Shown here one piece after another: positions 46,497 to 50,267 of a DNA stretch of 64,000 nucleotides (positions within the stretch are counted from its first letter, which is position 1; every line of letters starts with the position of its first letter). Position numbers and translations under genes: made by a program. This DNA comes from Saprospiraceae bacterium (GTDB taxonomy: Bacteria; Bacteroidota; Bacteroidia; Chitinophagales; Saprospiraceae). The DNA is taken from the NCBI GenBank assembly GCA_020629035.1, contig JAHDEC010000005.1:62001-126000 (forward strand). The letters run 5' to 3'. Below the pieces are notes generated by a model, which saw only the letters and a list, made by a program, of their open reading frames with translations, did no database searches and was not told where the DNA came from.

Positions 46497-49166
46497 ATGG
46501 ATAAAATAAGAGTTGGGATATTTTTTGGTGGACCCTCGAGAGAACGTGAAATATCGTTTGCAGGTGGTAGGACGGTTTATGACAATTTAGACAAAAGTCT
46601 TTATGAGCCAGTACCCATTTTTGTTGATTCCTTAGGTTCTTTTATTGAGTTAGATTGGAAGTATATCTATAAGGGAAGTATCCGTGATTTTTACCCTCCA
46701 GTGAATGCGATTCCTGCATCGGAAAATAATTTCCAAATTTATCTAGAGTCCATTCCTAATCTAGAGGATGTCCAATATCGTGAAATGATAAAAAGCGTTG
46801 GACGCCTTCTGGCCATCGAAGAATTAAAAAATAGCATCGATATAGCCTTTTTAGCCTTACATGGTGCAAAAGGGGAAGATGGTTCTATTCAGGGTCTATT
46901 GGATTTTTTAGATATTCCTTATACAGGCTCAGGAATTTTACCATCAGCCATAGGTATTAATAAATCGGTGCAAAAGGAATGGATGCCATTACTTGGCTTC
47001 GAATCTAAACCCAGCATTAGTATTCCTAGAGATGCAAATGATTATCACCGATTCTATAGCGAAACAAAAGAAAAAATAGGTTTTCCTTGTGTCATTCGTC
47101 CAGCGCACCAAGGATCTTCGATTGGTGTTTCTATCTTACGAGAAGATGATTATGATAGCTTTTCATTACTTATCGATAAAGCATTTTTTAGAGAAACCAT
47201 TAAGCTGGGAGATTGGAATACGCTCGAAGCAGCAGCTAAAGTAGCCGAAATACGAAGGATTACTGATATTCGAGAAAGTGTAGGTTTGCCATTGCTGATT
47301 AATGGAGAAACCATTTATCATCCAGAGGAATTATTACAGTTGCTAAACTCTTCGAACGAAGCTGAGCTGATACTGGAAGGATTAGATAGTGAGACAGAAG
47401 TATTAATCGAAGGCTTTATAGATGGAAAAGAATTTTCTTGCATTGTCATTAGAGACGAAGCGGGGAAATCTGTAGCCTTGCCACCTACAGAAATCATGAA
47501 AGGTCAAGAAGTATATGATTACCGCAGTAAGTACATGCCTGGGCTTTCTCGTAAAAAAACACCTATAGATCTAGCTTTAGACACGATTCAAAGTATACAA
47601 GCTAAATGTGTTTCACTTTTCGAAGCGTTTAGATTTCATACCTATGCAAGGATAGATGGATTTTATGATCATGAAGGCAAAGTGTACCTAAATGATCCGA
47701 ATACGACCTCTGGCATGTTGCCTTCCTCTTTCTTCTTCCATCAAGCCGCCGAAGTAGGTTGGAACCCTTCACAGTTCTTAAACTTTATTATTCGTAATTC
47801 AGTAGCCGAACGATTGAGAGCATCTACTATTCCACATAAATACAGCAAGCTGTTGCAACGAATCGACCAAGGTCTGGACGATCAAAAAAACGCAGCGGCT
47901 GTCAAGCAAAAAGTAGGCATCGTATTGGGTGGATATTCGTTCGAACGACATATATCTGTAGAGAGTGGTAGAAACGTATACGAAAAACTTGCTTCTTCCT
48001 CTAAATACGAAGCCATCCCCATCTTTCTAGCAGCAAATGGTAATGATTTTGATTTGTACCAAATACCTATACATCTCTTGTTAAAGGATAATGCGGACGA
48101 TATCAGAGATAATATTCTGAATTTCAAAAAACATAGTATTACCGAAAATCTAAAAGAACAATCGGCCACGCTAATAGAAAAATATCGTTCGGATTATACC
48201 GTCCTTGAACCACAAAAACTAGATAAAAACACGCTTAATAAGTATGTCGATCTAGTATTTATTGCGCTTCATGGTAGACCAGGAGAAGACGGTACTTTAC
48301 AAAAATTACTTGTTCAACAAAAAATTCCATTTAATGGTAGTATGCCGCACTCTGCAAATATTACCATCAATAAGTTTGACACGCTACAAAAACTAAAAGA
48401 ACATGGATTCAAGGTAACCAAACAACATGTTTACCATAAAGATGATTATGTAGCAGATCCACATAAAATGATGGCTGAACTCAACCATAGTTTTATGTAC
48501 CCATTTATCTTAAAACCATTAGATGATGGATGCAGCTCTGCCGTTAAGCTTATCAAAAACGATATCCAGCTGGCAGCCTATTTAGATACCATGTTTAGAA
48601 CTGAACTTGACATTGATCCTCAAAAAGCAAAAATCCTAGATTTAAAACCAAAGGAAGAATTTCCTAGAAAAAGAGAAGTCTTAGCAGAAGCTTTAATTCA
48701 GGCAAATGGCGCGCAAAAATTTTTAGAGATAACAGGTGGAATGATAACCCACCACAAAGGCGGTAATATAGAATATGAGATGTTTCACCCATCCGAAGCA
48801 CTTGCTGGTAGTGAAATACTAAGTCTAGAGGAAAAGTTTTTAGCAGGCGAAGGACAGAATATCACGCCTGCACGATTTGCTATTGGAAACATAGATTACA
48901 ATAAAGTGGCAGATCAGGTACGTTCTGATTTAAAGCGTGCGGCAAAAATATTGGAAGTAGACGGTTATTGTAGAATAGACGCTTTTGTTCGAATCTTTGA
49001 TGAAAATAACATTGAAACCATTATCATTGAGATTAATTCACTGCCCGGCATGACTCCAGCAACAGCAATTTTTCATCAATCGGCATTGAATAATTACAAA
49101 CCGTTTAATTTTATAGATCAGATACTGACATACGGAGTAGAAAGAAATTCAATCACTAAGACATAA
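46497..49166 (+). CDS. ddl: Tandem (double-length) D-alanine--D-alanine ligase
   Basis: An ATP-grasp ligase making D-Ala-D-Ala for peptidoglycan, here as two fused Ddl-like modules in 889 residues; ordinary Ddl has 300-370. Module 1 (about 1-455) keeps Glu16 in SREREIS, the GSSIGVS loop near 206 and the omega-loop YDYRSKY near 340, but its metal site reads LNDPNTTSGM (Glu to Asp). Module 2 (about 470-889) starts with VGIVLGGYSFERHIS and keeps the intact metal site CRIDAF ... IEINSLPGM, but has GCSSAV in place of the serine loop and no omega-loop tyrosine motif. So each half is degenerate in different parts. It is followed by a PASTA gene after 4 bp. Confidence 0.88.
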   Translation: MDKIRVGIFFGGPSREREISFAGGRTVYDNLDKSLYEPVPIFVDSLGSFIELDWKYIYKGSIRDFYPPVNAIPASENNFQIYLESIPNLEDVQYREMIKSVGRLLAIEELKNSIDIAFLALHGAKGEDGSIQGLLDFLDIPYTGSGILPSAIGINKSVQKEWMPLLGFESKPSISIPRDANDYHRFYSETKEKIGFPCVIRPAHQGSSIGVSILREDDYDSFSLLIDKAFFRETIKLGDWNTLEAAAKVAEIRRITDIRESVGLPLLINGETIYHPEELLQLLNSSNEAELILEGLDSETEVLIEGFIDGKEFSCIVIRDEAGKSVALPPTEIMKGQEVYDYRSKYMPGLSRKKTPIDLALDTIQSIQAKCVSLFEAFRFHTYARIDGFYDHEGKVYLNDPNTTSGMLPSSFFFHQAAEVGWNPSQFLNFIIRNSVAERLRASTIPHKYSKLLQRIDQGLDDQKNAAAVKQKVGIVLGGYSFERHISVESGRNVYEKLASSSKYEAIPIFLAANGNDFDLYQIPIHLLLKDNADDIRDNILNFKKHSITENLKEQSATLIEKYRSDYTVLEPQKLDKNTLNKYVDLVFIALHGRPGEDGTLQKLLVQQKIPFNGSMPHSANITINKFDTLQKLKEHGFKVTKQHVYHKDDYVADPHKMMAELNHSFMYPFILKPLDDGCSSAVKLIKNDIQLAAYLDTMFRTELDIDPQKAKILDLKPKEEFPRKREVLAEALIQANGAQKFLEITGGMITHHKGGNIEYEMFHPSEALAGSEILSLEEKFLAGEGQNITPARFAIGNIDYNKVADQVRSDLKRAAKILEVDGYCRIDAFVRIFDENNIETIIIEINSLPGMTPATAIFHQSALNNYKPFNFIDQILTYGVERNSITKT

Positions 49167-49170
49167 TATC

Positions 49171-49959
49171 TTGAGTTTTAAACAATTTATAAAGCACCTA
49201 TTAATCATAGCACTGATTCTAGTAATTATCTTTTTAGGTTTAAACTTCTGGCTTAAAAGTTATACTAATCATGGACAGCAGCTTGTTTTGCCAGATTATG
49301 TAGGTAAACACATTACCGAAGCCACAGAGGATGCAAAAGAAAAAAGCTTCGAAATTATTGTTAACGATTCGATCCATATAGTTGGAAAACCCGGAGGAAT
49401 TGTAACACGACAAAATCCCAAAAAAGATGCTAAGGTTAAAGAAAACCGTAAAGTTTACGTAACCATCACCAAATTTGATGCAGATGTGATCGAAGTAGGT
49501 AGTCTAGGAGTCATGTATGGTCAAGATTATGAAAGCAAAAAACGTGAACTTTCCTACGTCGAAATTGGTAGTAAAATAAAAAGTAGGAAATATGATCCAG
49601 GAGAACCGGATCACATCTTAGAGGTTTGGTACAAAGGTGAACCAATCATCACTAAAAATGTAGAGAAAAGAAAAGTGGCTATAGATAAGGGTGATACACT
49701 CTCTTTTGTCATTAGTCAGCGTGGAGGTGGAGAAACAGGCGTGCCTAATTTAGTTTGCAACACTTTTGCAGCAGCTCAGTTTATTTTAGAGTCAAGTCAA
49801 TTAAAGTTAGGTGATGTCAAAGAAGTAGGACCCGTTTCTGATATTAACTCAGCTTATATAATCGAACAATATCCAAGTCCTGAAACGGTACAAACAGTGC
49901 CTATGGGAAGGATGTTTAACTTAACTATTCAACAAGAAAAACCACAAGATTGTCAGTAA
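49171..49959 (+). CDS. PASTA-domain membrane protein
   Basis: A 262-residue protein with one N-terminal membrane helix (residues 8-27) and PASTA repeats outside: about residues 37-105 (LVLPDYVGKHITEATEDAKEK ... VYVTIT), a middle degenerate repeat, and 190-255 (GVPNLVCNTFAAAQFILESSQLKLG). PASTA domains bind peptidoglycan stem peptides. There is no kinase or transpeptidase part. Translation begins at TTG at 49171 because no ATG is available nearby. It starts 4 bp after the tandem Ddl gene; this order is common in Bacteroidota. Confidence 0.85.
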   Translation: MSFKQFIKHLLIIALILVIIFLGLNFWLKSYTNHGQQLVLPDYVGKHITEATEDAKEKSFEIIVNDSIHIVGKPGGIVTRQNPKKDAKVKENRKVYVTITKFDADVIEVGSLGVMYGQDYESKKRELSYVEIGSKIKSRKYDPGEPDHILEVWYKGEPIITKNVEKRKVAIDKGDTLSFVISQRGGGETGVPNLVCNTFAAAQFILESSQLKLGDVKEVGPVSDINSAYIIEQYPSPETVQTVPMGRMFNLTIQQEKPQDCQ

Positions 49960-50267
49960 TGAATGATATAGACGTATTAGAACTCAAACAAAAAATAGAT
50001 CGTGGAGATGACTTTTTATTCCTAGATGTCAGAGAAGTTCACGAATATGAGCAATTTAATTTAAACGCAAAATTAATCCCCTTAGGAAATCTAATGAGTC
50101 AATTAGATGAGCTGGAAGATTATAAAGAAAAAGAAGTAATTGTACATTGTAGATCTGGCGCTAGAAGTGGAAATGCAAAGCAACTTATGATGCAATCTGG
50201 CTTCAAAAATGTGCGTAATGTGCTGGGTGGAGTTTTGGCCTGGCAAGACCAAATAATAAAATCTTAA
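49959..50267 (+). CDS. Rhodanese-like domain protein
   Basis: A 102-residue single rhodanese domain with the active-site Cys in VIVHCRSGARSGNA and the early FLFLDVREVHEYEQF motif. The start is the ATG at 49959, which shares one base with the TAA of the PASTA gene, so the genes are coupled. It probably carries sulfane sulfur; the acceptor is unknown. Other rhodanese proteins of this length are soluble sulfurtransferases. Confidence 0.88.
   Translation: MNDIDVLELKQKIDRGDDFLFLDVREVHEYEQFNLNAKLIPLGNLMSQLDELEDYKEKEVIVHCRSGARSGNAKQLMMQSGFKNVRNVLGGVLAWQDQIIKS

What the first reader, a model, noticed from the sequence alone, without database searches (positions are those of the whole stretch)
46497..49166. 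Tandem Ddl whose two modules are degenerate in complementary positions
Two Ddl-like ATP-grasp modules sit in one 889-residue chain. Module 1 keeps the serine loop (GSSIGVS) and omega-loop tyrosine (YDYRSKY) but its metal site reads LNDPNTTSGM. Module 2 keeps EINSLPGM but has GCSSAV and lacks the YDY-type loop. Normal Ddl is a homodimer of complete subunits, so this could be a pseudo-heterodimer in which one half does catalysis and the other regulates, or the halves could share substrates. It sits in an operon with a PASTA protein that may bind the product's stem peptide.
Basis: partly seen in the sequence, partly recalled or inferred. Interest (0 to 1): 0.7.

Follow-up and report, generated by a model that had tools for sequence, protein, structure and literature searches.

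The report
Two-module cell-wall dipeptide ligase
Many bacteria of one large group appear to make an essential cell-wall building block with a single double-headed enzyme instead of the usual one, and its second head carries active-site letters that elsewhere go with a different product.

Summary
The 889-residue tandem Ddl is real, not an assembly merger: 173 of 395 genomes drawn from its class hold a match, whole or partial. No other Ddl was found in its own genome. Tandem and ordinary single Ddl exclude each other: 173 tandem, 197 single, 0 both of 395. So the tandem most likely is the housekeeping D-Ala-D-Ala ligase.

The halves are not degenerate. In 76 of 76 intact tandems, module 1 keeps Ser150, Tyr216, Arg255, Asp257 and Asn272 (DdlB numbers) with Asp at 270. 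Module 2 keeps the catalytic and metal residues checked but has Cys150 and Phe216. Phe there marks D-Ala-D-Lac ligases of lactic acid bacteria (PMC5996685). Two genomes carry only module 1 plus a module-2 stub, so module 1 is probably the essential half.

Some relatives fuse the gene to the neighbouring membrane PASTA protein. In 10 of 11 genomes of the family that also hit a single Ddl, the tandem has lost catalytic residues yet stays open and fused to PASTA, which suggests a second, non-catalytic role. Module 2's product is unknown; nothing was assayed.

The parts
46497..49166 (+). Tandem Ddl gene, 889 aa
   Evidence: Open frame; AlphaFold2 model pLDDT 87.1, pTM 0.86
46497..47837 (+). Module 1 (residues 1-447), probable D-Ala-D-Ala ligase
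   Evidence: Pfam PF01820 91.3 bits and PF07478 107.2 bits; best solved match T. thermophilus Ddl 6u1d_B, Z 38.4, 323 residues, 2.0 A; without module 2's catalytic half in G299 and G347
47904..49163 (+). Module 2 (residues 470-889), Ddl-like module with Cys150/Phe216
   Evidence: Pfam PF01820 82.9 and PF07478 55.0 bits; best solved match LmDdl2 D-Ala:D-Lac ligase 1ehi_A, Z 38.6, 340 residues, 2.7 A; next, an ordinary Ddl (3tqt_A), Z 37.4
47097..47099 (+). Arg201 of module 1, at DdlB Lys144 (Lys in 47 of 76 tandems)
47115..47120 (+). Ser207-Ser208 of module 1, serine loop (DdlB Ser150-Ser151), kept
47529..47534 (+). Lys345-Tyr346 of module 1, omega loop (DdlB Lys215-Tyr216), kept
47694..47702 (+). 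Asp400-Pro-Asn402 of module 1, metal site (DdlB Glu270...Asn272)
48531..48533 (+). Cys679 of module 2, at DdlB Ser150
   Evidence: 76 of 76 intact tandems
48834..48839 (+). Lys780-Phe781 of module 2, omega loop (DdlB Lys215-Tyr216)
   Evidence: 76 of 76 intact tandems
49029..49037 (+). Glu845-Ile-Asn847 of module 2, metal site, canonical
49171..49959 (+). PASTA protein, 262 aa: N-terminal membrane segment (about 49198-49254), then PASTA domains
   Evidence: PF03793 51.3 bits, 2 stretches; hydropathy 2.94; starts 4 bases after the ligase stop; fused to the ligase in some relatives

Best explanation
This is the housekeeping D-alanine--D-alanine ligase of its host, in a two-module form that replaces the ordinary single Ddl in much of its class. 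Module 1 is the D-Ala-D-Ala site: its substrate residues are canonical and its metal site uses Asp-x-Asn. Module 2 is a second, catalytically competent ATP-grasp site whose substrate side is rebuilt (Glu15-Cys150-Phe216 in place of Glu-Ser-Tyr), so it probably has another acceptor or another kinetic duty, not a dead regulatory role. The ligase works with the membrane PASTA protein encoded next to it. In some relatives the two are one chain: Ddl-Ddl, membrane helix, PASTA, with the ligase inferred to face the cytoplasm and PASTA the periplasm, as in PASTA kinases. Shown by comparison: sole Ddl found in this genome, mutual exclusion, residue fixation, module-1-only genomes, fusions, decay beside a second Ddl. 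Inferred: activity of each module, module 2's product, topology, and what PASTA senses.
For: Own genome: no other Ddl found; the five other PF07478 hits are two biotin carboxylases, a cyanophycin synthetase, PurD and PurK. Class draw: 173 tandem, 197 single, 0 both, 25 neither, of 395. Family draw: 123 tandem, 122 single, 11 both, 14 neither, of 248. Fixed residues: 76 of 76, 2 of 2 (G603, G604), and (15 chosen distant rows) Tyr216 and Asp270 in 13 of 13 module-1 rows, Cys150 and Phe216 in 12 of 12 module-2 rows, two of them copies in one genome. Module 1 without module 2's ATP-grasp half: G299 (561-codon frame) and G347 (581). Equal constraint on both modules. Decay of catalytic residues in 10 of the 11 family genomes with both, all 10 fused to PASTA. 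PASTA: 9 fused, 42 adjacent, of 80 unique loci. Phe for Tyr at this site separates depsipeptide from dipeptide ligases (PMC5996685, passages).
Against: No activity was measured. Module 1 has Asp where Ddls have Glu: 27 of 27 single Ddls compared here have Glu, and PMC6899670 gives 98-100% for its ATP-site set including Glu275 (passages), so module 1 could be weak. Module 2's catalytic half is absent in two genomes and its residues are lost in several with a second Ddl, which speaks against an indispensable second product. G299, one of the two module-1-only genomes, also has a 328-aa Ddl-like ATP-grasp protein of unknown function (58.5 bits in PF07478, no Ddl N-terminal domain); three of G347's other PF07478 hits were judged by frame length only. 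24 of 80 unique tandem loci have room downstream but no detected PASTA gene. Exclusion counts are not phylogenetically independent.
Confidence: 0.6

Rival explanations
1. Both modules make D-Ala-D-Ala. The substitutions in module 2 change kinetics, pH or metabolite response rather than the product, so the tandem is one cooperative two-site Ddl.
For: Both modules lose catalytic residues once a single Ddl is present, and not in one order: in G022 and G611 module 1 is hit harder, in G547 module 2. That fits two parts of one job.
Against: Phe216 and Cys150 are fixed in 76 of 76, and Phe at this site separates depsipeptide from dipeptide ligases in lactic acid bacteria (PMC5996685, passages). Module 1 seems enough in G299 and G347.
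Confidence: 0.35
2. Module 2 makes a second precursor end, such as D-Ala-D-lactate or D-Ala with another D-acid, giving the cell two stem-peptide termini.
For: Natural Tyr216->Phe plus loss of its partner Ser150 (partnership recalled), with the catalytic residues tested intact. Highest-ranked structural match of module 2 is the Leuconostoc D-Ala-D-Lac ligase 1ehi, Z 38.6, but an ordinary Ddl follows at Z 37.4.
Against: No D-lactate supply or matching downstream enzyme was looked for. Module 2 falls far below NCBIfam's D-Ala-D-Lac cut-off (70.2 against 550). Cys150 is not a recalled feature of lactic-type ligases. Module 2 decays or is absent in some lineages.
Confidence: 0.3
3. Module 2 is a non-catalytic regulatory or structural half that binds ATP or D-Ala and controls module 1.
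For: Tandems with lost catalytic residues, fused to PASTA, exist; in G610 versus G657 their modules show dN/dS 0.026 and 0.021, so the fold has a use without catalysis.
Against: In the 76 intact tandems module 2 keeps Lys97, Lys144, Glu180, Glu187, Lys215, Arg255, Asp257, Glu270 and Asn272 without exception. A purely regulatory half need not.
Confidence: 0.2
4. An assembly or sequencing artefact merging two ddl genes.
For: The two modules are separately recognisable Ddl modules.
Against: Matches in 173 of 395 genomes of the class draw and the whole chain in the closed genome CP012155.1; orthologous modules stand in the same order with the same fixed residues.
Confidence: 0.01

Closest known systems
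[quoted passage not shown] Pfam PF01820 + PF07478; E. coli DdlB)
   Same: Fold and nearly all catalytic residues in each module; inferred housekeeping role
   Different: Two modules in one chain; Asp for Glu270 in module 1; Cys150 and Phe216 in module 2; long insert before the Glu180 strand in module 1; two positions of the usual dimer face changed in module 2
D-Ala-D-Lac ligase of lactic acid bacteria (Leuconostoc LmDdl2, 1ehi)
   Same: Phe at the Tyr216 position of module 2; highest-ranked structural match of module 2
   Different: Only one half of a tandem; Cys150 as well; product unknown; different phylum
MurC-Ddl fusion of Chlamydia (recalled; search listing only)
   Same: Ddl fused to another wall-precursor enzyme
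   Different: Here the partner is a second Ddl module and, in some relatives, a membrane PASTA part
PASTA receptor kinases (PknB, PrkC, Stk1)
   Same: In fused relatives: an enzyme part, one membrane segment, then PASTA repeats
   Different: A wall-precursor ligase, or its catalytically decayed form, in place of a kinase

Membership tests
Ddl (D-alanine--D-alanine ligase) | N-terminal and ATP-grasp Ddl domains above curated cut-offs | tested here: met
   Both modules pass PF01820 and PF07478. NCBIfam TIGR01205 is passed by the whole chain (338.4 vs 245.65) but by neither module alone (211.0, 134.0)
Ddl (D-alanine--D-alanine ligase) | Canonical catalytic residues | tested here: inconclusive
   Module 1: all positions checked except Glu270->Asp, Leu282->Phe and, in part, Lys144->Arg. 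Module 2: all except Ser150->Cys, Tyr216->Phe, Ser281->Thr, Leu282->Cys/Ala/Val. 76 rows
Ddl (D-alanine--D-alanine ligase) | Sole provider of D-Ala-D-Ala in the genome | tested here: met
   Own genome, as far as PF07478 reaches (assembly 96% complete); 0 of 395 with both in the class draw
Ddl (D-alanine--D-alanine ligase) | Makes D-Ala-D-Ala in vitro | not testable with these tools
   No assay possible
D-Ala-D-Lac ligase of lactic acid type (module 2) | Phe at the DdlB Tyr216 position | tested here: met
   76 of 76; meaning of Phe/Tyr from PMC5996685 (passages)
D-Ala-D-Lac ligase of lactic acid type (module 2) | NCBIfam D_ala_D_lac models above cut-off | tested here: not met
   Module 2 scores 70.2 against a cut-off of 550 (NF000206); it also fails the general Ddl cut-off alone
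D-Ala-D-Lac ligase of lactic acid type (module 2) | Uses D-lactate | not testable with these tools
   No assay; no D-lactate genes looked for
PASTA receptor (linked protein) | PASTA domains behind a membrane segment | tested here: met
   PF03793 51.3 bits, 2 stretches; hydropathy peak 2.94
PASTA receptor (linked protein) | Binds muropeptide or lipid II | not testable with these tools
   Known for PknB (abstract, PMC6428115)

The most novel reading that the evidence does not exclude
A two-product wall-precursor ligase under direct envelope control. Module 1 makes D-Ala-D-Ala, and module 2, a natural Phe216/Cys150 site, makes a second D-Ala-D-X end. The tandem body also serves as the cytoplasmic half of a PASTA receptor, a ligase counterpart of PASTA kinases, and it survives as a catalytically dead receptor after a normal Ddl takes over synthesis.
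Probability: 0.22. Interest if true: 0.85.

Novelty: new variant of a known kind. Interest (0 to 1): 0.62.

Why it matters
Ddl is an essential enzyme and an antibiotic target (D-cycloserine; abstract of PMC5717164). If this reading is right, a large part of one bacterial class makes D-Ala-D-Ala with a two-site enzyme whose second site carries the residue that elsewhere decides dipeptide versus depsipeptide, and whose activity may be tied physically to a wall-sensing membrane protein. The PASTA-fused tandems that lost their catalytic residues give a natural way to separate a sensing role from a catalytic one.

Tried and rejected
Rejected: assembly merger. Rejected: loss of the metal site in module 1 and absence of the omega loop in module 2. 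Rejected: a second normal ddl in this genome; the five other PF07478 hits are AccC twice, cyanophycin synthetase, PurD and PurK. Weakly disfavoured: pseudo-homodimer through the usual face. Not settled: whether the modules arose by internal duplication. In the quick tree (15 of 28 tandems, 27 singles, DdlB) each module family is one side of a branch at 100, and modules 1+2 stand together against the rest with support only 69.

Led nowhere: paper searches for a described tandem Ddl or Ddl-PASTA protein listed none; the library lacks most subscription journals, and's 175 papers only 20 were listed. PMC4814524 (passages) concerns thermophile Ddls and vancomycin, not tandems. PMC5717164 and PMC6268094 were seen as passages and only cite the Y216F work. 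The dN/dS comparison was mostly saturated; only G610 versus G657 has low dS in all parts, and there is no unsaturated intact pair as a control. Decayed pairs at higher dS gave larger ratios: G022/G611 0.139 and 0.143, G033/G547 0.122 (module 1), 0.241 (module 2) and 0.153 (PASTA). A D-lactate or VanX co-occurrence test was considered and not run as too unspecific.

Rows dropped: L037, L038 (partial tandems) and L066 (masked single); L093 (truncated frame) and six duplicates, leaving 79 rows, 76 counted as intact and three from genomes with a single Ddl shown apart. The genomes behind the named records were not searched for a single Ddl. One search used 15 chosen rows of the loci fetched. L165 (second, stop-containing tandem-like copy in G474) was fetched and not analysed further.
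Full report
OBSERVATION. The frame 46497-49166 (+) is open and codes for 889 residues. Both halves pass Pfam's curated cut-offs for the N-terminal and ATP-grasp Ddl domains. The whole chain passes NCBIfam's Ddl model (338.4 bits against 245.65), but neither half does alone (211.0 and 134.0). The next gene, 49171-49959, starts four bases after the ligase stop and codes for a protein with one strongly hydrophobic segment followed by PASTA domains. Then comes a rhodanese-like gene (49950-50267).

WHAT THE RESIDUES SAY. I aligned 28 full tandems from relatives, 27 single Ddls from relatives and E. coli DdlB fetched from K-12, then 79 unique tandems (six duplicates and one truncated row dropped). 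These are mostly the best-scoring matches, so closer relatives are over-represented. DdlB numbers are used; residue roles are recalled or from PMC6899670. Three of the 79 come from genomes known to carry a single Ddl; the genomes of the records were not checked for one. In the other 76, module 1 has Glu15, His63, Lys97, Ser150, Ser151, Glu180, Glu187, Lys215, Tyr216, Arg255, Asp257, Asn272, Gly276 and Ser281 in every row, Asp at 270 in every row, and Lys or Arg at 144 (47 and 29). Module 2 has Glu15, His63, Lys97, Lys144, Ser151, Glu180, Glu187, Lys215, Arg255, Asp257, Glu270, Asn272 and Gly276 in every row, but Cys at 150, Phe at 216 and Thr at 281 in every row. The 27 singles all have Ser150, Tyr216 and Glu270. 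Fifteen chosen more distant rows agree: Tyr216 and Asp270 in 13 of 13 module-1 rows, Cys150 and Phe216 in 12 of 12 module-2 rows; five of the 13 have Thr for Ser151 in module 1. The omega loop said to be missing from module 2 is there: SLEEKFLAGEGQN, with invariant Lys, Phe, Leu, Ala, Gly and Asn positions. It is also the least confident stretch of the structure model. The two modules are equally conserved: mean pairwise identity 0.574 and 0.578, invariant columns 97 of 443 and 87 of 412.

WHAT IT REPLACES. In its own genome (96% complete) no other Ddl was found: the five other PF07478 hits are two biotin carboxylases, a cyanophycin synthetase, PurD and PurK. In a draw of 395 genomes of the class, 173 have a tandem match at E <= 1e-100 and 197 a single Ddl at PF07478 E <= 1e-35; none has both and 25 have neither at these cut-offs. 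The tandem count includes matches cut by contig ends and one shortened form (G299). In a draw of 248 genomes of the window's own family, 123 have the tandem (E <= 1e-30), 122 a single, 11 both and 14 neither. Relatives are not independent, so the Fisher values (2.5e-85 and 8.7e-41) only describe the tables. A phylum draw of 296 genomes gave 6 matches at E <= 1e-60, all in members of the same class; the answer does not show how many of the 296 lie outside the class. Names: G handles bear none. A contig of the same length as that of same-genus genome G001 is titled Saprospiraceae bacterium, and the closed genome of Bacteroidetes bacterium UKL13-3 carries the tandem. I therefore take the family for Saprospiraceae and the class for Bacteroidia; that step is inference.

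NATURAL EXPERIMENTS. (a) Two genomes of another family of the class, G299 and G347 (the latter a single 7.03 Mb contig), carry module 1 followed by only the N-terminal lobe of module 2 (open frames of 561 and 581 codons), with the module-1 residues in place. Their other PF07478 hits: G347 has PurK and three hits in frames of 448, 524 and 1180 codons, judged carboxylases by length alone; G299 has PurK, RimK and carbamoyl-phosphate synthase, two frames of 450 and 501 codons judged by length, and a 328-aa Ddl-like ATP-grasp protein of unknown function without a Ddl N-terminal domain (58.5 bits). G033, which has an intact tandem, has a protein that looks similar (L101; by eye). This points to module 1 as the essential site, most clearly in G347. 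(b) In 10 of the 11 family genomes with both hits, the tandem has lost catalytic residues. G022 and G611 are hit hardest in module 1, G547 in module 2; G003, G020, G538, G610, G657, G647 and G578 in both. The eleventh, G603, has an intact tandem, and its 'single' is an atypical protein without the serine loop, beside another ATP-grasp-like gene. G547 is in the same genus as G033, which has an intact tandem and no single; on the tree G547 sits beside G033 with a branch of 0.74 against 0.10, and well-supported branches force at least two changes between intact and decayed, though the tree warns of long branches. (c) All 10 decayed tandems are one open frame with the membrane segment and PASTA part. 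Between G610 and G657 these modules show dN/dS 0.026 and 0.021 at dS 0.29 and 0.21, so the protein is still under selection without its chemistry. This is one pair of close species; other pairs had higher dS, with ratios up to 0.24, and no intact pair was unsaturated.

PASTA LINK. Of 80 unique tandem loci, 9 are fused to PASTA (three of them the decayed ones), 42 have it adjacent downstream (gap under 600), 2 farther on, 24 have room but no detected PASTA, and 3 have no room. In all 9 fused proteins the strongest hydrophobic segment lies between the ligase and PASTA parts. PASTA genes also lie near single ddl genes in 4 of 18 stretches looked at: directly downstream in G055 and G073, divergent in G044 and G123. 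The link is therefore not peculiar to the tandem. In PASTA kinases the outer part binds peptidoglycan fragments or lipid II (PMC6428115, abstract; PMC5786024, abstract in search listing).

STRUCTURE. AlphaFold2 on 55 tandem sequences gave mean pLDDT 87.1 and pTM 0.86, weakest at module 2's omega loop. VIA-align ranks the Leuconostoc D-Ala-D-Lac ligase 1ehi first for module 2 (Z 38.6, 340 residues, 2.7 A; the next is an ordinary Ddl at Z 37.4) and T. thermophilus Ddl 6u1d for module 1 (Z 38.4, 323 residues, 2.0 A). This ranking is weak support only. Of five positions of the usual Ddl dimer face (PMC6899670, passages; my mapping to DdlB), Gly74 is kept in 68 of 76 module 1 and 1 of 76 module 2, Ala/Ser92 in 67 and 26 of 76; the other three do not separate the modules.

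MECHANISM. Most likely module 1 makes D-Ala-D-Ala, and module 2 is a second competent ATP-grasp site with a changed substrate side. In lactic acid bacteria Phe rather than Tyr at this position goes with D-Ala-D-Lac synthesis, and changing it to Tyr shifts activity (PMC5996685, passages). That Tyr216 and Ser150 are partners is recalled, not from a call. Against a vital second product: module 2 is partly deleted in two genomes and decays beside a single Ddl in several. I put about 0.3 on a different product, 0.35 on two sites for the same product, 0.2 on a regulatory half; these do not exclude the PASTA coupling.

VERDICT. The general claim, a class-wide two-module housekeeping Ddl often linked to PASTA, is well supported by comparison (0.6 for the whole explanation; higher for the replacement alone). 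I found no description of it in the papers searched, which do not cover most subscription journals. It is a new variant of a known kind.

Noticed in passing
L160 (G603:C526), ORFs near 715-2699: An atypical Ddl-like ATP-grasp without the serine loop lies directly beside a second ATP-grasp-like gene in a genome with an intact tandem; possibly a peptide-ligase pair.
   Followed up: partly
L198 (G299:C1), L101 (G033:C10), L100 (G025:C24): Other Ddl-like ATP-grasp proteins (328-400 aa) outside the housekeeping type in tandem-type genomes; the one in G299 has no Ddl N-terminal domain.
   Followed up: partly
L165 (G474:C311): A second tandem-like copy, 33% identical with an in-frame stop, in a genome that also has a full-length tandem in a long, apparently PASTA-fused frame.
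   Followed up: no
L195 (G245), residues about 476-506 of the 1007-codon frame: About 30 extra residues inside module 1 next to the metal-site strand, while the checked residues are kept.
   Followed up: no
L007 (G000:C61): The window's genome encodes a cyanophycin synthetase (TIGR02068, 1228.8 bits).
   Followed up: no
window 46497-47900, residues about 230-300: Module 1 carries an insert of roughly 70-80 residues between the serine loop and the Glu180 strand that DdlB and the aligned singles lack; its role is unknown.
   Followed up: no
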